IMG/VR virus record: IMGVR_UViG_3300010885_023630
Span: 1 to 64,000 of that record
Reading direction: 5' to 3' (one strand)
DNA: 64,000 nt
Source: a virus
In this document: one piece after another, positions 38,934-62,020 of the stretch
How positions within the stretch are numbered: the first letter of the stretch is position 1
How the letters are laid out: each line of letters starts with the position of its first letter
Program-made: the position numbers and the translations under genes
Notes under the pieces: model-generated
What the model saw: only the letters and a program-made list of their open reading frames with translations
Database searches by the model: none
What the model was told of the DNA's origin: nothing

Positions 38934-39953
38934 ATGACAAATCTATTCAAAAAAGCCGCTATCTTTACGGATATTCACTTTGGACTCAAATCAAACAGCA
39001 CACTACATAACGAAGATTGTTTAAATTTTGTTAAGTGGGCAACTGCTAAAGCCAAGGAGGAAGGTTGCGAAACTTGCCTCTTTCTTGGAGATTGGCACAA
39101 CAATAGAGCCAGCATCAACATTCTTACACTAGGCTACAGCCTACGTGCGCTGGAGCATATGAATGACAACTTTGACAATGTGTACTTTATTCCTGGTAAC
39201 CATGATCTTTATTATAGGGATAAGAGAGATGTCCAAAGTGTTGAATGGGCAAAACATTTACCTAACATCCATATTGTTAATGATTGGTTTGACAGTGGTA
39301 ACGTTACTATTGCCCCTTGGCTTGTGGCCGACGATCACAAGCGTCTTAAACGACTCAAAGGTAAATATATGTTTGGGCACTTCGAATTGCCTGGCTACTT
39401 AATGAATGCCATGGTTGCCATGCCCGATCACGGTGAAGTAGATCCTAAAAACGATTTAGCAGGTTTTGAGCACGTATTCTCAGGGCATTTCCACAAGCGT
39501 CAAACTAAAGGCAATATCACTTATGTAGGTAATTGCTTCCCGCACAACTATGCGGACGCCGGCGATGATGACCGTGGACTAATGATATTGGAGTGGGACA
39601 AAGAACCCGAGTATCATGCGTGGCCCGATCAACCTATATATCGTGTGTTCCAACTAAGCGATGTACTTAAACATACCGAAGTAATGCTTAAACCAAACAT
39701 GCACGTTCGTGTTAACTTAGACATTGATATCAGTTACGAAGAAGCCACCTTTATCAAAGAAACATTTATTGATACTTATAAGTTACGTGAAATTACCTTA
39801 ATACCGGCCAAGACAACAGATCTAACTGACTACGAAATTCAAGGTAACATAGAATTTGAAAGTGTCGACCAAATTGTGTTTAGTCAATTAAGCACAATCG
39901 ATAGTAATCAATACAACCCAAACCTACTGTTGGATATCTATAGAAATTTATAA
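38934..39953 (+). CDS. 47: Recombination endonuclease subunit gp47 (SbcD/Mre11-like)
   Basis: 339 residues, the same length as T4 gp47. Calcineurin-type phosphoesterase motifs appear in order: FTDIHFG (DxH), FLGDWHNNR (GD), FIPGNHDL (GNHD), MFGHFE and FSGHFHKR (GHxH), coordinating two metal ions. With gp46 it forms the nuclease-ATPase that resects DNA ends for recombination-dependent replication. No Shine-Dalgarno sequence precedes the ATG, and the -10 box is only 6 bases away, suggesting a leaderless message. In T4 gp47 and gp46 are near neighbours; here three genes of metabolic type separate them. Confidence 0.95.
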   Translation: MTNLFKKAAIFTDIHFGLKSNSTLHNEDCLNFVKWATAKAKEEGCETCLFLGDWHNNRASINILTLGYSLRALEHMNDNFDNVYFIPGNHDLYYRDKRDVQSVEWAKHLPNIHIVNDWFDSGNVTIAPWLVADDHKRLKRLKGKYMFGHFELPGYLMNAMVAMPDHGEVDPKNDLAGFEHVFSGHFHKRQTKGNITYVGNCFPHNYADAGDDDRGLMILEWDKEPEYHAWPDQPIYRVFQLSDVLKHTEVMLKPNMHVRVNLDIDISYEEATFIKETFIDTYKLREITLIPAKTTDLTDYEIQGNIEFESVDQIVFSQLSTIDSNQYNPNLLLDIYRNL

Positions 39954-41462
39954 ATGAATACCATTACCCGAGACTGTATTAACAGAGATATAAAGTTATT
40001 CCAGTTTAAAGAAGCCGAATTAGATCGTACATACAATTACGAAGAATTCTGTTGGCTCATTGACCGCTGGAAAATACTGCTAGTTGACAAATATAAAGCC
40101 GAGCGTGGGCAAACTTGTTTAATTGATTATACGTTTATTAGCCCCATGTACTTTGCCGCTATCTTTGCTGCAAGCGAACTAGGATTAATCTTAATTGTTG
40201 ATTTGCCGCATTGTTATAATGATCAAGATGTGTTAAGTTACAAAGTAAACATGCATGGTAAAATTGATTATATTATTACTCACGAAGTAAAATACAATCC
40301 TGATCATGTGTTTTATTTTGAATATGATCTTAAGCGTAATGCCCATATAGGGAAGAATGTAATATTTCAGCGGGAGTTACACGAGCACGTTTCCAGTAAT
40401 CCCGATTTAATCAACACCGTCAGCAAACTTATATGGTGTAGGCCCGAAGATACATTAGTCTATGCCTGTAGCAGTGGCACAACCGGTTTGCCTAAACGCA
40501 TACAAGATAATCACGAAAAAATCTATTTGATGGCAAAGCGTCTTGAAACAAACATGGGCTTTGAATCAACGGACAAGATTTTACATACTCGCAACATACA
40601 CCACGGAGCAAGTATGGTTTATCATTTCTTGCCTAGCTTTATGTGCGGTGGATCGCAATACACTCCAGGATTCACAGTAGACGATTTATCTGAAGCGGGA
40701 ATTAAACGAATAATTAAATTTGTTAAAGACTATCAAATTGATCATGTGTTTTTATATCGTCCAGAGTTTTTATATAACTTTTTAAACTACTGCGAAGCAT
40801 TGCCGTTTCCTTTTAAAATACAGACCTTATTCCAATTTGGAGAAGATGTATTAAAAATGGCACACGAAAAAAATGCTCGTTGGATTAGCGTTAGCTTTGG
40901 CGATACACACATTGGGCTAGGTTTGTTTACTAAAATTGTCGACACACGCCAATTGCCCAAGGATTACGTTCCTAATAACTTTGGACCAGCTAGAGATGAT
41001 TTTTACGAATACGAATTACGCGATCATAAACTCTATGTCAGAATACCTAGCATAGGTCAAGATTGGAAAACCAGTAACGATAAGTTTGATCTAGTCAATG
41101 GAGAATACATTTTCGAAGGACGTGCGGACCAATATCGTATTGGCGAGGAGTGGATAGACTTTGATGCGATGGATCGGGCAGTTAAAGAGATTTTTAAGGG
41201 AGCGGCTAGTTTTAGTCTGGACTTTGAAATGCAAAAGCTGTATTTGGCTGTATGGAAAGATAACCCTACAGCAGAAAAAGAGTTTGACGAATACTTAAAA
41301 ACAAACTACGAAGCCGTACGTGTTGCGTATGTACTAAGAGATCAAAACGTTAAAGAGTTTTTTAACGGAAGAAAAATTGATTTATCAAAAATTAGAGACT
41401 ACGGCCGAGCAGGACTAGGCATTCGATTAGAAGACACATTTTTAAAAGGAAATTTAAGGTGA
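39954..41462 (+). CDS. ANL-family adenylate-forming enzyme (acid ligase), copy 1
   Basis: 502 residues, starting at the base after the gp47 stop. The phosphate loop ACSSGTTGLPK (about residues 170-181) is the hallmark of ATP-dependent carboxylate adenylation (acyl-CoA synthetases, NRPS A domains, luciferases). Other family elements: HHGAS (about 215), SFGDT (about 315), WKTSNDKF where others have TGD, GRADQYRIGEEWI (A8 hinge, about 389) and a C-terminal RKIDLSKIR that may hold the catalytic Lys. Reaction: acid + ATP to acyl-adenylate, then transfer to CoA or another acceptor. The acid is unknown. The Asp of the TGD motif is replaced by Asn. A paralogue lies beyond the TctC gene at 42393. Confidence 0.82.
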   Translation: MNTITRDCINRDIKLFQFKEAELDRTYNYEEFCWLIDRWKILLVDKYKAERGQTCLIDYTFISPMYFAAIFAASELGLILIVDLPHCYNDQDVLSYKVNMHGKIDYIITHEVKYNPDHVFYFEYDLKRNAHIGKNVIFQRELHEHVSSNPDLINTVSKLIWCRPEDTLVYACSSGTTGLPKRIQDNHEKIYLMAKRLETNMGFESTDKILHTRNIHHGASMVYHFLPSFMCGGSQYTPGFTVDDLSEAGIKRIIKFVKDYQIDHVFLYRPEFLYNFLNYCEALPFPFKIQTLFQFGEDVLKMAHEKNARWISVSFGDTHIGLGLFTKIVDTRQLPKDYVPNNFGPARDDFYEYELRDHKLYVRIPSIGQDWKTSNDKFDLVNGEYIFEGRADQYRIGEEWIDFDAMDRAVKEIFKGAASFSLDFEMQKLYLAVWKDNPTAEKEFDEYLKTNYEAVRVAYVLRDQNVKEFFNGRKIDLSKIRDYGRAGLGIRLEDTFLKGNLR

Positions 41463-42403
41463 AAAAAGTATTAACTATATTATTAATGAGCCTGGCTACA
41501 CTAGCTGGCGCACAGACAACATTCCCTAACAAGCCAGTTAGATTTATTTTGTCGTTACCGGCCGGTTCCGGCCCCGACGTTGTGTCCAGAAAAGTAGCAG
41601 AGGTCTTATCGGAAAAATGGGGGAAGCCTGTTATTGTTGAAAACAAGCCTGGAGGCGGAGGTAGCATTGCTATCAATTATCTTGACAATGAACCCGGCGA
41701 CGGATATAATATTGGATTTTTTGACGCAGGTGCTATTGTGTCGTATCCTGTGTTGTATAACAAGCCAGAATTAATTGCCACCATTGAACCAATTCGTCCG
41801 TTATTTACAGCACACATGGCATTGATTACTTCCACAGACATTAAGAACTTTAACGAACTTAAACAATTAATGGCCAGTAATACTAATTACGGATCATGGG
41901 CAGTCGGGTCATCTGGGCACTTATCTGGTGCCGAGTTTGGCGCTCAAATTCGCACAGGTATGGATCATGTTGCTTATAAAGAGTACCCAGCGTGGTATAT
42001 TGATATTTCTAATAAGCAAATTGCGTACGGGTTTGGTAGTATCGGGTCGTCACGTGCTATGCGTGAGGCAGGACGTATTCACTACTTAGGTATTTCAGCT
42101 AGTAAGCGTGATCCAAACTGGCCCAACGTGCCCACTATTAAAGAACTAACAGGTGTAGAATTAAAGACTCCCCCAAGTTGGTTAGCATTTTATATTCGCA
42201 AGTCCGTGGACAAAAACATTAAAGTACAAATAGAAAAAGACATGCGAGAAGCCGCGCAAGATCCTCGCGTTAAAGAAGCTATTGCTAAATTAGATTATGT
42301 TGATTACGGTTCTATGTCGTTGCCAGAGTTTAATCGGTTGGTAGCACAAGATATTGTTAATTATGGAAATGTTGCTAGAAAGTTTAACATTAATGTACAA
42401 TAA
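41459..42403 (+). CDS. TctC/Bug family periplasmic solute-binding protein
   Basis: 314 residues, GTG start at 41459 overlapping the previous stop (GTGA) with AAAAGGA upstream. The N-terminus is a typical Sec signal peptide (MKKVLTILLMSLATLAGA, cleavage likely before QTT). The mature protein matches tripartite tricarboxylate transporter receptors: FPNKPVRFILSLPAGSGPDVVSR, EKWGKPVIVENKPGGGGSIA, then a NVPTIKEL-type segment (WPNVPTIKELTG) and APSW-like PPSWLAFY. Such proteins bind organic acids in the periplasm and hand them to TctAB; no membrane subunits are encoded here, so it would have to use host TctAB. The family is strongly expanded in Betaproteobacteria. It is flanked by ANL ligases, suggesting uptake plus activation of one acid (inference). 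Confidence 0.9.
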   Translation: MKKVLTILLMSLATLAGAQTTFPNKPVRFILSLPAGSGPDVVSRKVAEVLSEKWGKPVIVENKPGGGGSIAINYLDNEPGDGYNIGFFDAGAIVSYPVLYNKPELIATIEPIRPLFTAHMALITSTDIKNFNELKQLMASNTNYGSWAVGSSGHLSGAEFGAQIRTGMDHVAYKEYPAWYIDISNKQIAYGFGSIGSSRAMREAGRIHYLGISASKRDPNWPNVPTIKELTGVELKTPPSWLAFYIRKSVDKNIKVQIEKDMREAAQDPRVKEAIAKLDYVDYGSMSLPEFNRLVAQDIVNYGNVARKFNINVQ

Positions 42404-43865
42404 TAAAATCGTAACAAGACATTGCGTCAATCCAGACATAATCATACATCGTCATAATATCGACGGTACTCCTACACGCTCATGGAATTACCAAGAGTTT
42501 AGTGATATGGTTAATTTCTGGAAAGTAATGCTAGTAGAAAAATATGATCCTAAGCCCGGGCAAAAGGCGTTTGTGTATGGTACTCCAGGTATACACTATT
42601 ATACAGCACTATTTGCCGCAATAGAACTAGGACTTGTTATGATTATCGACTGGCCGCATTGTCGTAGCGAGGAAGACTTTAAGAGTTATAAAGTTAATAT
42701 GTTCGGTAAGTTGGATTTTGTTATTACTGAGCGTATAGATTTTTTACGACCCGAGAGTCCAGAGTATCAGCCATGGGAACATGCTCGCAATACACAATTA
42801 TCGAATACTCAAGTATATTTTGATGAGTTAGACACGTATACTATACAAGATAATTCCAGGTACGAAGAAATTTCTAATCGTATTGTTCCTAAACCCGACG
42901 ATATAATGCTTGAGTATTGTAGTAGCGGCACAACCGGTACTCCTAAAAAATTATACGAAACTCATAAAAAGATATATCGTATGGCTGAACGTTTAGGGAA
43001 ATACTTTGGATACAAGGCTGACGATAAATGCTTACACACTAACAACATACACCACGGTGCTAGTTTGTGTTACTACTGGTTACCTACATTTATGATTTGC
43101 CGCGAGCATTATAGTCAGGATCCTAGAGTATTGCTTTCATTGGACTGGATTAGAAAAGAAAAAATTAATCAAATGTTTTTATATCATCCGTCAATGTTGC
43201 TATCTTGGTTAGTAGGAACTAAACCAGTTGATCATGAAGTTAATATTGTTACACTATATCAGATTACCAAAGAAGTTGCTGGCTTAATGAAAGAAAAAAA
43301 TATTACTAGTGTACAAACTAGCTTTGGTGACACTAGTATTGGGTTAGGATTCTTTATTAAGAAAGTTACACAGGAAACTGATTTAGCATCGTATAATGTT
43401 ACTAATATGGGCCCACAGCTAGATGATAATTTTTTCCTACTAGAAGTCAGAGACGGTCTGTTGTATATTTCGTGTCCCGAAATGGGCGAAGGTTGGCGCA
43501 CTAGCGACGATGTGTTTGATTTAATCGATGGTGACTTTTATTTTAAAGGTCGCGCAAATTTATACAGAATCAATGACGAATGGATTTCATTGAATCAACT
43601 AATAGATAAAGTAAATCAGTTATTTGGGGAAAACAAAGCGGCAGTTGTAGTTGATGCTGACGCACAAAAATTATATTTAGGTGTGTGGGAAGAAAATCCC
43701 GAAGCCGAACAAAAGTTTAACGAGTACTTAGAATCGACGTGGCAATTACTTAGACTGTCTTATGTATTACGCGGTTACACCTACGATGACTTTTACAATA
43801 GTCGAAAAATTGATAACTCCAAAATTCGAGATTATTGTCGTACTCGATTAGGTTTATCTTCTTAA
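42393..43865 (+). CDS. ANL-family adenylate-forming enzyme (acid ligase), copy 2
   Basis: 490 residues from the ATG at 42393, overlapping the TctC stop by 11 bases; the in-frame upstream ATGs fall deep inside TctC. Clear paralogue of the enzyme at 39954: EYCSSGTTGTPK (about residues 173-184), NNIHHGAS, TSFGDTSIGLGFF, WRTSDDVFDLIDG (the TGD equivalent with Asp kept), GRANLYRINDEWI (A8, with Asp of GRxD changed to Asn) and SRKIDNSKIRDY near the end. Expected to adenylate a carboxylic acid; substrate unknown. It is followed by gp46 after 22 bases. Confidence 0.82.
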   Translation: MYNNKIVTRHCVNPDIIIHRHNIDGTPTRSWNYQEFSDMVNFWKVMLVEKYDPKPGQKAFVYGTPGIHYYTALFAAIELGLVMIIDWPHCRSEEDFKSYKVNMFGKLDFVITERIDFLRPESPEYQPWEHARNTQLSNTQVYFDELDTYTIQDNSRYEEISNRIVPKPDDIMLEYCSSGTTGTPKKLYETHKKIYRMAERLGKYFGYKADDKCLHTNNIHHGASLCYYWLPTFMICREHYSQDPRVLLSLDWIRKEKINQMFLYHPSMLLSWLVGTKPVDHEVNIVTLYQITKEVAGLMKEKNITSVQTSFGDTSIGLGFFIKKVTQETDLASYNVTNMGPQLDDNFFLLEVRDGLLYISCPEMGEGWRTSDDVFDLIDGDFYFKGRANLYRINDEWISLNQLIDKVNQLFGENKAAVVVDADAQKLYLGVWEENPEAEQKFNEYLESTWQLLRLSYVLRGYTYDDFYNSRKIDNSKIRDYCRTRLGLSS

Positions 43866-43875
43866 CTTATTATGT

Positions 43876-43881
43876 TATACT
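43876..43881 (+). promoter_or_regulatory. 46: -10 element (TATACT) just upstream of gp46
   Basis: TATACT ends 6 bases before the gp46 ATG at 43888, the same spacing as at gp47. A -35 box is poor (TTTATC at 17-base spacing). No Shine-Dalgarno sequence is present. Confidence 0.45.
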
Positions 43882-43887
43882 AACTCA

Positions 43888-45657
43888 ATGTTTAAAATAA
43901 AAACTCTAACGGTTAAAAACTTTATGAGTGTAGGCAATACTACACAAGCGGTTGATTTTGATCGACGTGACTTAACACTGGTTTTGGGCGAAAATTTAGA
44001 CTTAGGAGGAGACGACTCCGGCGCACGAAACGGTACAGGTAAAACAACTATTATCAACGCATTGAGCTATGCCCTGTACGGTAACGCCCTTACTAATATT
44101 AAAAAAGACAATTTGATCAATAAGACCAATACCAAAGGCATGATGGTTACTATTGATTTTGAAAAAGAAGGAGAATTATATCGTATTGAGCGTGGGCGTA
44201 AACCTAACATAATGAAATTTTGGGTCGGTGATAACGAAAAAGAAATCACTGATGACGCACAAGGTGACAGCAGAGAAACACAAGCAGACATTGAACGTAT
44301 GCTAGGCATGAGCCACGACATGTTCAAACATATTGTAGCTCTTAACACCTACACTGAACCTTTTCTTGCCCTTAAAGCAAACGATCAGCGTACCATCATT
44401 GAACAATTATTGGGCATTACACTACTAAGCGAAAAAGCCGATCGTCTTAAAGAACAAAACAAAGCAACTAAAGATGCTATTACACAAGAAGAGTTTCGTA
44501 TTAAAGCTGTTGGTGATGCCAACAAGCGTATTGAAGAACAAATCGAAGCACTTAAACGTAGACAAACAATGTGGATCAATAAACATGCTGAAGATACAGG
44601 GAAATTACAAACCGCTCTCAGTGAGCTACTCAAAATTGATATTGATGCGGAAATTGCGGCACACAAGGCTCTTGCTGAATATAAGTCAAAGAAGAAAGAT
44701 ATCACTGATTTATCATCCTATATTTCACGATGCGAACAGGACGAAGTACGTGAAAATCGGCTTATTGAAAAGCTCAGGAAAGACATTGCGGCACTCAAAG
44801 ACCATAAGTGTCACTCCTGCGGGCAAGATCTCCACGACGAAAAACACGAGTCTAATTTAACCAGCAAGAAAAAAGAGCTACAAGAAGCTGCATTACAAGC
44901 ACTATCTACAAACACGCAGTGGATGGAACTCACAGATGCGCTTAAAGAGCTAGGCGAGCTAGGCGTTAAACCAGAAACGTTTTACGACAAAGAAGAAGAT
45001 GCTATCCATCATCGTAGTACGTTAGCTAACTTACAGCAACAAATTGAAACCAAGTCCACAGAACAAGATCCGTACCAAGAACAAATTCAAGAAATGTCAG
45101 AACAGGCACTAGAGGAAATTAGCTTTGACCTTATTAATGAACTTACAAATGTCAAGGATCATCAAGAGTTCTTGTTAAAACTATTAACAAACAAGGATAG
45201 TTTTATCCGCAAACGAATTATTGATCAGAATTTAAGTTATTTAAATGCCCGCTTGGGACAATACCTGGACCGTATTGGCTTACCACACACAGTTAAGTTT
45301 AACAACGACTTGACTGTAGCCATTACAGAATTAGGTAGAGATCTAGACTTCGACAACTTGAGTCGTGGAGAACGTAACCGCTTGATTTTATCCTTGAGTT
45401 GGGCGTTCCGCGATGTTTGGGAAAGCCTATATCAACCCATTAACTTGTTGTTCATTGACGAGTTAGTAGACAGCGGTATGGATAGTTCCGGAGTTGAAAA
45501 CTCTTTAGCTATCCTAAAAAAGATGAGTCGTGAAGCTAACAAGTCAATTTGGTTAGTGTCACACAAGGATGAGCTAGCGGGTCGTGTCAACAATACACTA
45601 CACGTAGTTAAAGAAAATGGATTTACAAGTTACAACACCGACGTCGACATTGCTTAA
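43888..45657 (+). CDS. 46: Recombination endonuclease subunit gp46 (SbcC/Rad50-like ATPase)
   Basis: 589 residues (T4: 560). Walker A GARNGTGKT at residues 45-53; a central coiled coil (about 170-430) interrupted by the zinc hook CHSC (about residue 309); ABC signature LSRGERNR (about 491) and Walker B LLFIDELVDSGMD (about 520), followed by the switch His in VSHKDEL. Forms a complex with gp47 to resect DNA ends for recombination and late replication. Start ATG at 43888 lacks a ribosome site and is 6 bases from a TATACT box. Its 3' end overlaps the next radical SAM gene by 41 bases. Confidence 0.95.
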   Translation: MFKIKTLTVKNFMSVGNTTQAVDFDRRDLTLVLGENLDLGGDDSGARNGTGKTTIINALSYALYGNALTNIKKDNLINKTNTKGMMVTIDFEKEGELYRIERGRKPNIMKFWVGDNEKEITDDAQGDSRETQADIERMLGMSHDMFKHIVALNTYTEPFLALKANDQRTIIEQLLGITLLSEKADRLKEQNKATKDAITQEEFRIKAVGDANKRIEEQIEALKRRQTMWINKHAEDTGKLQTALSELLKIDIDAEIAAHKALAEYKSKKKDITDLSSYISRCEQDEVRENRLIEKLRKDIAALKDHKCHSCGQDLHDEKHESNLTSKKKELQEAALQALSTNTQWMELTDALKELGELGVKPETFYDKEEDAIHHRSTLANLQQQIETKSTEQDPYQEQIQEMSEQALEEISFDLINELTNVKDHQEFLLKLLTNKDSFIRKRIIDQNLSYLNARLGQYLDRIGLPHTVKFNNDLTVAITELGRDLDFDNLSRGERNRLILSLSWAFRDVWESLYQPINLLFIDELVDSGMDSSGVENSLAILKKMSREANKSIWLVSHKDELAGRVNNTLHVVKENGFTSYNTDVDIA

Positions 45658-46609
45658 TTATCGACGCATTCATATTGAGTTGAGCAGTAAGTGTACATTA
45701 AAGTGTCCGCGCTGTCCGCGAACGGAGTTACAGCCCGAACAACTTAACAGAGAAATTAGTTTGTTTGAGTTTCAACGTGCGTTTAGTTCTGACATACTTA
45801 AAGACATACAGGAAATAACATTCTGTGGTGATGTAGGAGATCCTATATATGCTCGAGACTTTTTACGTATTGTAGAATATATCAAGAAGTCGCGTTTTAA
45901 TATCAGTTTGATTATTGTTACTAACGGTAGTTACAAATCTGAGCTGTGGTGGCAAGAGTTGGGTATGTACCTGCGTTACAATGATAAAGTTACGTTTAGT
46001 GTGGATGGGTGGGATCAAGTCAGCAACGAACAATATCGTGTCAATTCGGACTTTGATAGTATAGTTGCTGGCGCTCGTGCGTTGAGAAAAGTAACTCGAG
46101 CGCAGATGAATTGGTCTGCTATCTATTTTAAATTTAACGAAAGTAAAATGCACTGGATACAGGACCTCGCACGTGATTTGGGGTTCGATACCTTTGAGTC
46201 TGTGCTAAGTTCAAAAGTTGATGGTAGATATTTAATCAACGGAGTAGATCCACTAAAGCCATCCAATGGCTACGTTGCTGGTACTAGCCGGTACGAAGTT
46301 AAAACAGAAAAACTTAATGGCAAGGTACCTATTGTATTTTACGACAAGGTAGATCGTCATCCCTGGGCCAAATGTATGAACTGGGAAAAGGAAATGTTTA
46401 TTAATGTAGACGGATTGGTATTTCCTTGTCCCTGGTTTAATAGTGGCTACTTAGAAAACGATTTTGTAGATAAGCATAGAGATAAAATTAATATTAAAAC
46501 TAGAACACTAAAAGAAATCTTAGCAGATCCTCTGTGGGAAGAACTACACACACGATTTGCTGTGGGCCCATTAGAGATTTGTCGATTAAAATGCGAGAGC
46601 TGTCAATGA
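45617..46609 (+). CDS. Radical SAM/SPASM-type protein
   Basis: 330 residues from an ATG inside the end of gp46; a TTG at 45650 is an alternative start. The radical SAM motif CTLKCPRC is at residues 26-33, after HIELSSK. A C-terminal SPASM-like set of cysteines is visible: KCMNW, VFPCPWF and the final CRLKCESC, expected to bind auxiliary [4Fe-4S] clusters. SPASM enzymes usually modify peptides or proteins. It differs from the other four radical SAM proteins here, which carry their extra cysteines at the N-terminus. The stop overlaps the next radical SAM gene (ATGA), so the pair is coupled. Confidence 0.85.
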   Translation: MDLQVTTPTSTLLNYRRIHIELSSKCTLKCPRCPRTELQPEQLNREISLFEFQRAFSSDILKDIQEITFCGDVGDPIYARDFLRIVEYIKKSRFNISLIIVTNGSYKSELWWQELGMYLRYNDKVTFSVDGWDQVSNEQYRVNSDFDSIVAGARALRKVTRAQMNWSAIYFKFNESKMHWIQDLARDLGFDTFESVLSSKVDGRYLINGVDPLKPSNGYVAGTSRYEVKTEKLNGKVPIVFYDKVDRHPWAKCMNWEKEMFINVDGLVFPCPWFNSGYLENDFVDKHRDKINIKTRTLKEILADPLWEELHTRFAVGPLEICRLKCESCQ

Positions 46610-47865
46610 GTAATGTATTTTGTAATATTCCTTGGGTAGAAGTCCATATCAATGCAGATGGGACTTACCATACCTGCGGCGCACAAACCAATCGTATCAG
46701 TGGCACAGAAGAAGCTAAACTGTACAATGTACACAACATGACTATTCCTGCGTGGATCAACAGCGAGCATCAGCGCAGGGCTAGGATTAATAAACTTAAT
46801 AACATACCTGAGTCTGCTTGTGCTATGTGTTATCACGAAGAAAGTTTAGGTAGTAGTAGTAAGCGAGTTAAAGAAAATTTAAAAAGCGGCATTACTGAAA
46901 ACAATTTTGAACTTACATTTATACACAGTAAAGACTATCCCTTGTTTGATTATTCGGCACGTAACAAAGGCTTAACTGATTTTGATCGTCCTACCAGCTA
47001 TCATTTAAGTTTAGGTAACGAATGTAATTTGGCCTGTAAAATGTGTGGGCCTACTGCTAGTAGTCGACTGGCTGTACAAATGATCAAAGAAGGTACATAT
47101 TCTGGCCCGGCACGTATGAACTGGACCGAAGACGAAACAGCGTGGAATCACGTAGTAGACTACATTTGCACTACCGAAAACCTAAAGTTTGTACACCTAA
47201 TAGGCGGGGAACCATTGATGAATCCTCGCTTCGAACAGTTGATAGATAGGCTTTTAGCAGCCAAAAAGACAGATATTTACTTAGGGTTTACTACCAACGG
47301 CACTATGTTTAACCACAATTTAATGACTAAATTATCGGCATTTAGGCACGTAGATGTAGGAGTTAGCATAGAGTGTTGGGGCGAATTAAACGACCTAGTA
47401 AGGCAAGGTTCTACTACACAAACCGTGCTAGATAACATAGATCAGTACTTGAAATACCGTCGACAGGCACACATTTACGTTACGCTACGGGCAGTACCTA
47501 GCGCACTTACAGTACACACGCTAGACGAATTGTATAAGTGGTGTATTACTCGCGAGCTAGATGTGGTAACTAATATATTGGTAGAACCCGAATATCAACA
47601 GATATCGCAACTACCAAAAGAAATTAAAGAACGGTTAATAGCACGTTATGAGCTATGGCAACATAGCGAGCCAGCACCTGCTGACAGTAATCCTAGAGAC
47701 CCAACTTGGTTTAAACAACATATCGATAACGAAATTATGGCAATCATCATGGCACTCAAACAAGAACCCGAACACAATTTAACTGATGAACTTTACGATA
47801 AACTTGAACTTTGGGGTTGGTTTGACCACCCAGAGGTGAAAAAATATTTCTTCATATGCGATTAA
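46606..47865 (+). CDS. Radical SAM protein with N-terminal Cys (twitch-like) region
   Basis: 419 residues from the ATG at 46606, which overlaps the preceding stop as ATGA. N-terminal cysteines C6 and C24 (FCNIPW, YHTCGAQTN) and C72/C75 (CAMCYHEESLG) match the arrangement in the minus-strand proteins at 518 and 1698, with the SAM motif CNLACKMC at residues 140-147 and IGGEPL about 65 residues later. So it belongs to the same family although it lies 45 kb away on the other strand. Substrate unknown; the adjacent SPASM enzyme may act on the same target. Confidence 0.85.
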   Translation: MSNVFCNIPWVEVHINADGTYHTCGAQTNRISGTEEAKLYNVHNMTIPAWINSEHQRRARINKLNNIPESACAMCYHEESLGSSSKRVKENLKSGITENNFELTFIHSKDYPLFDYSARNKGLTDFDRPTSYHLSLGNECNLACKMCGPTASSRLAVQMIKEGTYSGPARMNWTEDETAWNHVVDYICTTENLKFVHLIGGEPLMNPRFEQLIDRLLAAKKTDIYLGFTTNGTMFNHNLMTKLSAFRHVDVGVSIECWGELNDLVRQGSTTQTVLDNIDQYLKYRRQAHIYVTLRAVPSALTVHTLDELYKWCITRELDVVTNILVEPEYQQISQLPKEIKERLIARYELWQHSEPAPADSNPRDPTWFKQHIDNEIMAIIMALKQEPEHNLTDELYDKLELWGWFDHPEVKKYFFICD

Positions 47866-59480: not shown

Positions 59481-60176
59481 ATGAAAACTCTAATAGTAGG
59501 GTTTGGTGATAGTTGGACTTTTGGATCTGAATTAGATCGCCCACAAGAACAAAGTTGGGTAGCACAACTAGCTTCCAAACTTGATTGTGAACACGTTAAT
59601 CAAAGTTGCCCAGCAAGTAGCATTGGGCATTTAACCGTACAACTATTTGATTTTATTAAAAAAGACTATACAGATTATAAAAAAATCTTTATGGTTGGAC
59701 TATCTGGATCAACACGATACTTAACCTACAATAATTCTCGTAACGAGTTTGCTAACATAACACCCGACACAGTTTATAGCACTAGCGATATATACCCAAA
59801 CGGACAACCTCCGCAAACATTAGATCATATGCGTGAGCTATTAAAACAAACGTATATGTATGTTGAGCATACAGAGTACAATAAATTTTTAGCAACGCAA
59901 ACAATATTCTTATTTCAACAATATTGTTATCAACACAATATTGATGTAGTCTTTTTTAGTTACTTTGATAAAATTAATTTTGATAAAGAATTAGTTAATA
60001 CAGATATAATATATCCTACCAGCATAACACAAGCATTAACTGGCAGTGAGTATTCGCAAGAAACAATGACACATGAGTATTTTTTGGGCAAATTGTTTCA
60101 TCCAAACATCGCAGGTCATGCTAAAATAGCAGAACTATTAAAAGATTATTATGACAGCAATTATCCAGGGAATTGA
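59481..60176 (+). CDS. SGNH/GDSL-type hydrolase, copy 1
   Basis: 231 residues. IVGFGDSWTFGSEL (residues 4-17) is the GDSx block I with the nucleophilic Ser; GLSGST follows about residue 74, and FHPNIAGHAKIAELL near the C-terminus supplies the catalytic His of block V (HPNxxGH). Such enzymes hydrolyse esters, often O-acetyl or acyl groups on glycans. No signal peptide, so it acts in the cytoplasm or on the virion. It starts a three-gene cassette (hydrolase, GT-like protein, hydrolase) between capsid and fibre genes and overlaps the next gene by 26 bases. Confidence 0.82.
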   Translation: MKTLIVGFGDSWTFGSELDRPQEQSWVAQLASKLDCEHVNQSCPASSIGHLTVQLFDFIKKDYTDYKKIFMVGLSGSTRYLTYNNSRNEFANITPDTVYSTSDIYPNGQPPQTLDHMRELLKQTYMYVEHTEYNKFLATQTIFLFQQYCYQHNIDVVFFSYFDKINFDKELVNTDIIYPTSITQALTGSEYSQETMTHEYFLGKLFHPNIAGHAKIAELLKDYYDSNYPGN

Positions 60177-61125
60177 AGGCGACGACCTTTCTTTTCACAT
60201 TCGATTATTAGGCAACGACATTAATCGTCTACCCAACGATGTTTGGTTTTACCCATTAAATGATCATTACAATATACACAGCGCATCTTGGCACGATGCC
60301 CAGGTAGAACAGATTAATCGTGCTCGTACTGTGGTATTTTATGATTTGGTTAATACTGGCGACTACGAACACAGCAGGTTTGTGAAATTTGTTGAAGAAT
60401 TTGAACACCCTAACAAGTATTATCTAACAGTAAACCAAAGTAACATAGAAATACCTGACGTTAAAATAATACAGTGGGACTTTATGTGGAATAGAATAAA
60501 AGCATATTATACAGCATCTATACCCGAAGAATTACACTTACATCATTACAGTTACGGTAACTATAAGTTATTTGATTTAGACTTTAATAGTCTTAGAAAT
60601 AAAAAGTTTTTGTCAATGACAGGTAGAGAATATGGATATCGCACACACCTATACAACTTTGTAAAAGATTACGATGGTTATATATCTAATAGAAGTTTAG
60701 GGATTACATTAGAGAACACAGAAGTCATGGGTGCGTTTAATCCTGTACCTAATAATTTTTATCTAGACAGTTATTTTAGTTTTTATGTTGAAAGTAATTG
60801 TCAACAACAAAATTTAATACACATAACAGAAAAAACATTTGAGCCTTTGATTAAAGGACATTTTATATTGCCTGTGAGTAACCCTGGTACTATAAGACGC
60901 TTACGTGATTTAGGGTTTGCGTTTCCTAAATTTATTGATTATAGTTTTGATGAAGAACTAGATACAGTTCAACGTTTTGAGTTAATTAAGTTAGAATTTA
61001 AACGCCTATTAGATCTAGATTGGCACACGCTATATAAAGACAACCAAGACATATTAATACATAATCAACGCTGTATATTTTCTATACCATACGATCGCAG
61101 ACTACTGGAAATTTTTAATGTATAA
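60151..61125 (+). CDS. Glycosyltransferase-like protein (exostosin/GT10-like end)
   Basis: 324 residues. The C-terminal third has HITEKTFEPLIKGHFILPVSNPGTIRRLRDLGF and then FIDYSFDEEL, a pattern like the donor-binding domain of exostosin and fucosyltransferase-type GT-B enzymes (EKxxxxLxxGxxPxxxG). The N-terminal two thirds are alpha/beta without a recognised motif (KKFLSMTGREYGYRTHLYNFV in the middle). A sugar-transfer role is suggested but not proven. It overlaps the flanking SGNH hydrolase genes (26 and 8 bases), so the three proteins are probably made together and act on the same glycan. Confidence 0.55.
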   Translation: MTAIIQGIEGDDLSFHIRLLGNDINRLPNDVWFYPLNDHYNIHSASWHDAQVEQINRARTVVFYDLVNTGDYEHSRFVKFVEEFEHPNKYYLTVNQSNIEIPDVKIIQWDFMWNRIKAYYTASIPEELHLHHYSYGNYKLFDLDFNSLRNKKFLSMTGREYGYRTHLYNFVKDYDGYISNRSLGITLENTEVMGAFNPVPNNFYLDSYFSFYVESNCQQQNLIHITEKTFEPLIKGHFILPVSNPGTIRRLRDLGFAFPKFIDYSFDEELDTVQRFELIKLEFKRLLDLDWHTLYKDNQDILIHNQRCIFSIPYDRRLLEIFNV

Positions 61126-62020
61126 ATTTTATAACAATTTGTCTTTTGAACAAGCAATAGACCATAAACAACAAAACTGGAACATTGATGATCCATACAG
61201 CTACAGATGCTGGTACGAAGAAGATGTAACAGAAAAAGAAATATTAGTAATTACTGTTGGTGATAGTTGGACCTGGGGAGACCATTTGGGTGTAATAGAC
61301 TGGGACAAAGCCAGCAATGACCCTTGTAGAATGGAAGAAATAGCAGGGCGAGTATTAAGTAATCGTATGAGAGCCGACTGGGTTAATATTGCTCGCCCTG
61401 GTTGTAGTAACTATTGGATGATAGAACAATTAATAAACATAGAAGATCACTTACATCGTGTGCGTAACAAATACAAACAAATTTATGTAGTTGTAACATT
61501 AACAGAAGACTTGCGAGAATCAACTTACGCCAGGCGTATTAATGTTGATAAACCTTATCAAGAGTTTTGGGATAACAGCAATAGTATTAAAGAATTTTTA
61601 GTAAAAGTTGAAGGTTACTTGTTTTATAACTTAGAAGAATTCTTTAAACGTGTGCCGTTTGTTAACGCAAAAGTTAGTCGAGCATTTACTGATGTTTGGC
61701 TAGAAAATACCAGCCCGTTGTTATTAGAAAAAACCTGGTGTGATGTAATACAAGATAATATACAGTTTGACCGCTATTGGAAACCAGTTCCGTTTGTGGG
61801 ACAAATGGCTATAGATCCATTGAATGAAAAGTTTATGTCGCAGTTGTCGGGGCAACGTGAATTAAGATATAAGGAAGAATTCTTAGATATAATGGATCGG
61901 GTAGGTCGTAGATGGAACTTTTTAGGAGCCAGTGACTACAACTTAAAAGGCAGTACGTATCACCCAAATGCCGCAGGGCACCGACTTTGGGGAGATTATC
62001 TTTATGTACATATTAGGTAA
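61118..62020 (+). CDS. SGNH/GDSL-type hydrolase, copy 2
   Basis: 300 residues. Block I is VITVGDSWTWGDHLG (about residues 45-59), NIARPGCSNYWM may be block II, and the end YHPNAAGHRLWGDYLYVHIR carries the catalytic His. It is longer than the SGNH protein at 59481 by an N-terminal extension (about 40 residues) and an insertion of about 60 residues before the last block. Likely an esterase or acyl-transfer enzyme on glycans. The stop codon TAA is part of a TAAATA late promoter serving the next gene. Confidence 0.82.
   Translation: MYKFYNNLSFEQAIDHKQQNWNIDDPYSYRCWYEEDVTEKEILVITVGDSWTWGDHLGVIDWDKASNDPCRMEEIAGRVLSNRMRADWVNIARPGCSNYWMIEQLINIEDHLHRVRNKYKQIYVVVTLTEDLRESTYARRINVDKPYQEFWDNSNSIKEFLVKVEGYLFYNLEEFFKRVPFVNAKVSRAFTDVWLENTSPLLLEKTWCDVIQDNIQFDRYWKPVPFVGQMAIDPLNEKFMSQLSGQRELRYKEEFLDIMDRVGRRWNFLGASDYNLKGSTYHPNAAGHRLWGDYLYVHIR

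What the first reader, a model, noticed from the sequence alone, without database searches (positions are those of the whole stretch)
39954..43865. ANL ligase - TctC binding protein - ANL ligase cassette inserted between gp47 and gp46
gp46 and gp47 form one complex and are near neighbours in T4. Here 3.9 kb of metabolic-type genes separate them, all overlapping or abutting. A periplasmic organic-acid binding protein between two acid-activating enzymes suggests a phage-driven route: capture an organic acid, import it through host TctAB, activate it as acyl-AMP or acyl-CoA. I know of no described phage system of this kind.
Basis: partly seen in the sequence, partly recalled or inferred. Interest (0 to 1): 0.88.

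Follow-up and report, generated by a model that had tools for sequence, protein, structure and literature searches.

The report
Phage cassette for organic-acid capture
A large bacterial virus carries, wedged between two DNA-recombination genes, a protein of the kind bacteria export to catch organic acids, flanked by two acid-activating enzymes; related viruses carry variants, three of them with a salicylate-oxidising enzyme, which suggests that these viruses feed acids, probably aromatic ones, into their hosts' metabolism.

Summary
gp47, ANL1, TctC, ANL2 and gp46 lie head to tail at 38934-45657, overlapping or abutting. It is not an assembly accident: TctC, an ANL-type ligase, or both occur in 11 further distinguishable viral contigs, 10 of them in the same gp47/gp46 slot, which is empty in the cultured relative PA5oct. 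TctC always touches an enzyme gene. Gene order differs (ANL-TctC, TctC-ANL, ANL-TctC-ANL), and one phage carries the pair beside a ribonucleotide reductase gene. Phages with 95% identical gp47 carry different versions, so the slot exchanges cassettes. TctC and ANL are under purifying selection. All 11 phage TctCs look exported and form one clade. The ligases keep the A3, A7, A8 and A10 residues but lack the usual A5 glutamate. In three relatives TctC is followed by dioxygenase subunits closest to salicylate 5-hydroxylase NagGH; Burkholderiales operons pair TctC with NagGH or with an AMP ligase. Best reading: an exchangeable acid capture-and-conversion module that borrows the host TctAB permease, probably for aromatic acids. 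Import, ligand and enzymatic activity are inferred, not shown. No TctA, acyl carrier protein or dioxygenase reductase was found in the phage records searched, which may be fragments.

The parts
38934..39953 (+). gp47 (SbcD-like nuclease subunit), left border of the slot
   Evidence: PHROG phrog_100 E 1e-60; 62-73% identical in relatives
39954..41462 (+). ANL1, AMP-forming ligase homologue, 502 aa
   Evidence: Pfam AMP-binding E 7e-11; motifs; fold search hits EntE, ACSM2A, MenE (medium-confidence model)
41459..42403 (+). TctC/Bug-type solute-binding protein with signal-peptide-like N-terminus, GTG start, 314 aa
   Evidence: Pfam TctC E 4e-30; relatives Bug27, BugD, terephthalate-binding protein; N-terminus
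42393..43865 (+). ANL2, second AMP-forming ligase homologue, 490 aa from ATG 42393
   Evidence: Pfam AMP-binding E 5e-15; 39% identical to ANL1; start read
43888..45657 (+). gp46 (SbcC-like ATPase subunit), right border of the slot
   Evidence: PHROG phrog_77 E 7e-102; 52% to PA5oct

Best explanation
The cassette is an auxiliary metabolic module that phages related to the jumbo phage PA5oct exchange in a variable slot between gp47 and gp46. TctC is exported to the periplasm, binds an organic acid (probably an aromatic carboxylate) and hands it to the host's own TctAB-type permease. In the cytoplasm the phage ANL enzymes adenylate the acid (to acyl-AMP or acyl-CoA), or in relatives a NagGH-like dioxygenase hydroxylates it, so that it enters host carbon and energy pathways during infection. 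Shown: gene content, co-occurrence, rearranged orders, cassette exchange, purifying selection, export-type N-termini, retention of most catalytic residues. Inferred: use of host TctAB, ligand class, enzyme activity, benefit to the phage.
For: 12 distinguishable phages with TctC in 11 and ANL in 10; TctC always adjacent to ANL and/or dioxygenase genes. Order flips, re-pairing and one relocation. dN/dS 0.04 for TctC and 0.12 for ANL between L001 and L004. Signal-peptide-like N-termini in all 11 TctCs. TctC-alpha-beta dioxygenase order in L051, L053, L056, closest to NagG and NagH. Bacterial clusters with TctC plus nagGH or plus AMP-binding enzyme, and TctC in gallate/protocatechuate clusters. 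Precedent: TphC is encoded with catabolic genes, apart from its permease TpiBA (PMC8556258).
Against: No ligand or activity data. The A5 Glu usual in AMP-forming ligases is missing in all nine aligned phage ANLs. No TctA, acyl carrier protein or PF00175 reductase in the searched phage records, so every downstream and membrane step must come from an unidentified host. The window phage itself has no dioxygenase, so 'aromatic' is by analogy. A review notes that no evidence yet shows one TctAB serving many TctCs (PMC5812351). Most characterised TTT ligands carry two carboxyl or similar groups (same review).
Confidence: 0.55

Rival explanations
1. Activation for conjugation: the ANL enzymes make acyl-adenylates used to decorate a phage or host glycan, protein or nucleic acid; TctC secures the acid, and SGNH-fold proteins may act as acyltransferase or esterase.
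For: An SGNH-like gene precedes ANL in L001, L004 and L006; SGNH-like genes lie next to the capsid genes of the window; no catabolic pathway genes were found in the window phage.
Against: SGNH is absent from the slot in the window, L042, L045, L054 and L056; no acyl carrier protein found; the dioxygenase variants fit catabolism better.
Confidence: 0.15
2. TctC and ANL are repurposed and no longer act in acid uptake and activation; for example TctC is a periplasmic decoy or superinfection-exclusion factor and ANL a nucleotide-binding regulator.
For: Loss of the A5 Glu in the ANLs; long stem of the phage TctC clade; no permease in the phage records. The same record also holds a DctP-type binding protein without an evident signal peptide.
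Against: A3, A7 Asp, A8 Arg and A10 Lys stay invariant or nearly so; TctC keeps family loops; dioxygenase variants keep the metal-site regions aligned to NagG.
Confidence: 0.17
3. Aromatic-acid detoxification or signal quenching: the module removes salicylate- or anthranilate-like compounds that harm or signal to the infected cell, rather than feeding metabolism.
For: NagGH-like subunits in three relatives, whose NCBIfam best match is anthranilate dioxygenase AndAc/AndAd below cut-off.
Against: A high-affinity-type import protein is an odd choice for detoxification; no signal-related genes seen beside the cassette.
Confidence: 0.1
4. Assembly chimera or host contamination.
For: None found; read mapping could not be run.
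Against: Homologous cassettes in the same slot in contigs from many separate IMG/VR records; phage-specific TctC clade; phage-like GC.
Confidence: 0.01

Closest known systems
Bacterial TctC-plus-catabolic-enzyme operons: tphC-tphA2-tphA3 of Comamonas (PMC8556258); nagGH ... TctC of Acidovorax sp. DW039; AMP-binding protein ... TctC of Variovorax paradoxus VAI-C
   Same: An orphan TctC encoded next to the first enzyme acting on the acid, without its permease; TctC-alpha-beta order in L051, L053 and L056 equals tphC-A2-A3.
   Different: Here on phages, inside the gp47/gp46 slot, without regulator, reductase or later pathway genes; phage ANL is far from the bacterial ligases (no hit in plasmids).
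Phage-encoded PstS and other auxiliary metabolic genes (reviewed in PMC6359870)
   Same: A phage-borne periplasmic binding protein that would borrow the host's membrane permease.
   Different: Organic acid rather than phosphate (inferred), and physically paired with an activating or oxidising enzyme.
tctA domain hit on a putative SUP05 viral contig (PMC4164917)
   Same: Another component of the same transporter family reported on a putative viral contig.
   Different: Permease domain only, role unknown; no TctC, ligase or dioxygenase cassette described.
Salicylate 5-hydroxylase NagGH (PDB 7c8z)
   Same: Closest solved relative of the dioxygenase subunits in L051, L053 and L056.
   Different: Not present in the window phage; substrate of the phage enzymes untested.

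Membership tests
[quoted passage not shown]
   PF03401 E 4e-30, 106 bits against cut-off 27; Bug27 E 1e-27
[quoted passage not shown]
   K-rich start, hydrophobic stretch and A-x-A-like end in all 11 phage TctCs; by eye and hydropathy only, no dedicated predictor
[quoted passage not shown]
   Family loops kept; structure model too poor
[quoted passage not shown]
   No TctA in the phage records; many bacterial TctCs are orphans (PMC5812351); host unknown
ANL superfamily (AMP-forming ligases), by homology | Family match and fold | tested here: met
   PF00501 above cut-off for both window copies; Foldseek 1e-15 to EntE, ACSM2A, MenE with a medium-confidence model
ANL superfamily, canonical catalytic ligase | A3 GTTG loop, A7 Asp, A8 Arg, A10 Lys | tested here: met
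   GTTG, D376, R390 and K474 invariant in nine phage ANLs
ANL superfamily, canonical catalytic ligase | A5 Glu (motif YGxTE) | tested here: not met
   [FY]G[DE][TS][HST] in all nine. Hence filed as an ANL homologue, not as a proven ligase
Any named acyl-CoA or aryl-AMP ligase subfamily | Curated NCBIfam score | tested here: not met
   Best scores 27-34 bits against cut-offs of 317 or more
NagGH-type salicylate 5-hydroxylase oxygenase (relatives L051, L053, L056 only) | Alpha and beta subunits with Rieske CxH...CxxH and catalytic domain | tested here: met
   PF00355, PF00848 and PF00866 above cut-off; 7c8z A and B best in PDB
NagGH-type salicylate 5-hydroxylase oxygenase (relatives L051, L053, L056 only) | Activity on salicylate with ferredoxin and reductase partners | not testable with these tools
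   No PF00175 reductase in the records; NCBIfam equivalog cut-offs not reached

The most novel reading that the evidence does not exclude
A lineage of jumbo phages carries interchangeable first-step catabolic modules (binding protein plus ligase and/or salicylate-type dioxygenase) that redirect aromatic acids from the surroundings into infected cells, probably Burkholderiales, swapped as cassettes in one genomic slot.
Probability: 0.4. Interest if true: 0.85.

Novelty: new variant of a known kind. Interest (0 to 1): 0.74.

Why it matters
Known phage metabolic genes mostly concern photosynthesis, phosphate, nucleotides and sulfur (from general knowledge). A phage-borne periplasmic organic-acid binding protein coupled to activating or ring-hydroxylating enzymes would mean that phages widen their host's diet during infection, possibly to aromatic acids, and would tie infection to the turnover of dissolved organic carbon. 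It also offers a test of whether an orphan TctC can use a permease encoded in another genome, a mechanism for which a review saw no evidence yet (PMC5812351).

Tried and rejected
Assembly chimera: rejected, independent contigs share the cassette. Recent host acquisition of TctC: rejected, one phage clade on a long stem; by contrast the dioxygenase of relatives is 60% identical to bacterial proteins. Recent tandem duplication of the ligase: not supported, ANL1 and ANL2 are 39% identical and each about 48% to L003. Phage-encoded permease: TctA not found. Acyl-carrier partner: not found. Two genome-contig scans for bacterial relatives found nothing, probably because the peptide patterns are phage-specific. 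The TctC model was too poor to use (pLDDT 51) and the ANL1 model only medium (66), so no substrate claim rests on models. DNA search against annotated phages: nothing. By protein: for TctC one unverified gut contig at 24%; for ANL1 nothing; for the dioxygenase one unannotated gut contig and records filed as Acinetobacter phage MD-2021a that look bacterial. Species-genome searches by taxon were not possible from a virus record. Literature: no TctC-ligase or TctC-dioxygenase phage cassette found in the open-licence library.

Full report
WHAT IS THERE. The window is part of a 127-kb virus record of a T4-like phage whose gp46 is closest, among cultured phages, to jumbo phages of the PA5oct group (52%). 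In the run gp55-gp47-X-gp46, X is ANL1 (39954-41462), TctC (41459-42403) and ANL2 (42393-43865), all on the + strand. gp47 abuts ANL1; ANL1 and TctC overlap by 4 bases, TctC and ANL2 by 11; 22 bases separate ANL2 from gp46. The slot is empty in PA5oct and holds one or two small ORFs in Atu_ph07 and Phosso.

A FAMILY OF CASSETTES, NOT AN ACCIDENT. Searches of IMG/VR with the ligases and with TctC and gene maps give, with the window, 12 distinguishable phages. Between gp47 and gp46 they carry: window ANL-TctC-ANL; L001/L017, L004/L005/L007 and L006 SGNH-ANL-TctC (contig L017 begins inside the ANL); L042/L043, L045 and L054/L055 TctC-ANL; L056 ANL-TctC-dioxygenase alpha-beta; L051 TctC-alpha-beta; L053 three unknown ORFs, then TctC-alpha-beta; L003 an unknown ORF and ANL (the contig starts there, so TctC may be cut off). 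L018 carries ANL-TctC beside a ribonucleotide reductase small-subunit gene, away from gp46/47. TctC is in 11 of 12 and always touches an enzyme gene. L051 and L053 have gp46 95% identical and may be close kin, so the count of independent events is lower than 12.

THE SLOT SWAPS CASSETTES AND THE PARTNERS RE-PAIR. L006 and L054 have gp47 95% identical yet carry different versions in opposite order. L006 and L042: gp47 86%, TctC 45%, ANL 35%. TctC of L018 is 83% identical to that of L001 while their ANLs are 42%. In L056 the ANL groups with those of L042, L045 and L054, but the TctC with those of L051 and L053. Staying adjacent through re-ordering, re-pairing and relocation argues for joint function. 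Between L001 and L004, dN/dS is 0.023/0.647 for TctC and 0.069/0.563 for ANL. Phage TctC forms one clade (100/100) on a long stem apart from the sampled Burkholderiales relatives (few bacterial sequences, midpoint root).

THE PARTS. TctC: full Pfam match, relatives Bug27, BugD and terephthalate-binding protein, signal-peptide-like N-termini in all 11 copies, family loops kept. The position aligned with TphC pocket residue P86 (residue numbers from PMC8556258; alignment mine) is Asp in the eight TctCs that accompany ANL alone and His or Ser in the three that precede a dioxygenase; the latter are one clade, so this is suggestive only. ANL: homologues of AMP-forming ligases with GTTG, A7 Asp, A8 Arg and A10 Lys invariant in nine sequences but no A5 Glu; the motif is [FY]G[DE][TS]x. 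Motif names and the role of the A5 Glu are from general knowledge of the superfamily. No ligase subfamily model is approached. Whether the ANLs adenylate is likely but open.

THE AROMATIC CLUE. In L051, L053 and L056 the genes after TctC are alpha and beta subunits of a ring-hydroxylating dioxygenase (L053 alpha 99% identical to L051) whose best solved relatives are NagG and NagH of salicylate 5-hydroxylase, and which are about 60% identical to proteins on Burkholderiales and other plasmids. The order TctC-alpha-beta equals tphC-tphA2-tphA3 of Comamonas, where the binding protein is encoded apart from its permease TpiBA (PMC8556258). On Burkholderiales plasmids, dioxygenase alpha and beta, a cupin protein, a fumarylacetoacetate-hydrolase-family protein and TctC lie in a row, and an AMP-binding protein, thioesterase, monooxygenase and TctC share another cluster. 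Two of the plasmid TctCs closest to the window's lie in gallate and protocatechuate clusters. These lines favour an aromatic acid, at least in the dioxygenase-bearing relatives. For the window phage, which has no dioxygenase, it is an inference.

HOW IT WOULD WORK. Inferred chain: phage TctC is exported, binds the acid and docks to host TctAB; the acid enters; ANL activates it, or NagGH-like subunits hydroxylate it with host electron carriers, for host pathways. Not found in the searched phage records: TctA, acyl carrier protein, PF00175 reductase. All records may be fragments, so absence is weak. Hosts are unknown; Burkholderiales is suggested only by the affinities of TctC and the dioxygenase.

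WHAT IS KNOWN. No comparable phage cassette was found in the annotated phage collection or in the open-licence literature searched. The nearest notes are phage PstS (PMC6359870) and a tctA domain on a putative SUP05 viral contig (PMC4164917). The kind (auxiliary metabolic gene, phage-borne binding protein) is known. The coupling of a carboxylate-type binding protein to an activating or ring-hydroxylating enzyme in a swappable slot appears new.

Noticed in passing
L022:3003-3977 (same virus record, 122502-123476): A DctP-type (TRAP family) solute-binding protein, PF03480 E 1e-31, inside a tRNA cluster, with no evident signal peptide and a tRNA gene just upstream. It is a second orphan organic-acid binding protein in the same record; not found in the ten related records searched.
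   Followed up: partly
45617-47865: Two radical-SAM/SPASM proteins directly after gp46; the second exceeds the NCBIfam cut-off for twitch-domain radical SAM proteins. Relatives have one, two or none at this place, so the variable region continues past gp46.
   Followed up: partly
59481-62020: Two SGNH/GDSL-like proteins and an unassigned protein between them, just after the gene for a capsid-like protein.
   Followed up: no
L001:4150-6231, L004:12477-14558, L054:10466-12547, L056:10750-12825: gp46 in these relatives is 691-693 aa against 587-589 in the window and others: an insertion of about 100 residues in the coiled-coil region.
   Followed up: no
L008:3259-4596 (+) and L008:9593-11011 (-); also L010, L011: Another phage group carries two very divergent ANL homologues per contig, one near a carbamoyltransferase gene and a SegE-like gene; no TctC seen in the stretches read.
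   Followed up: partly
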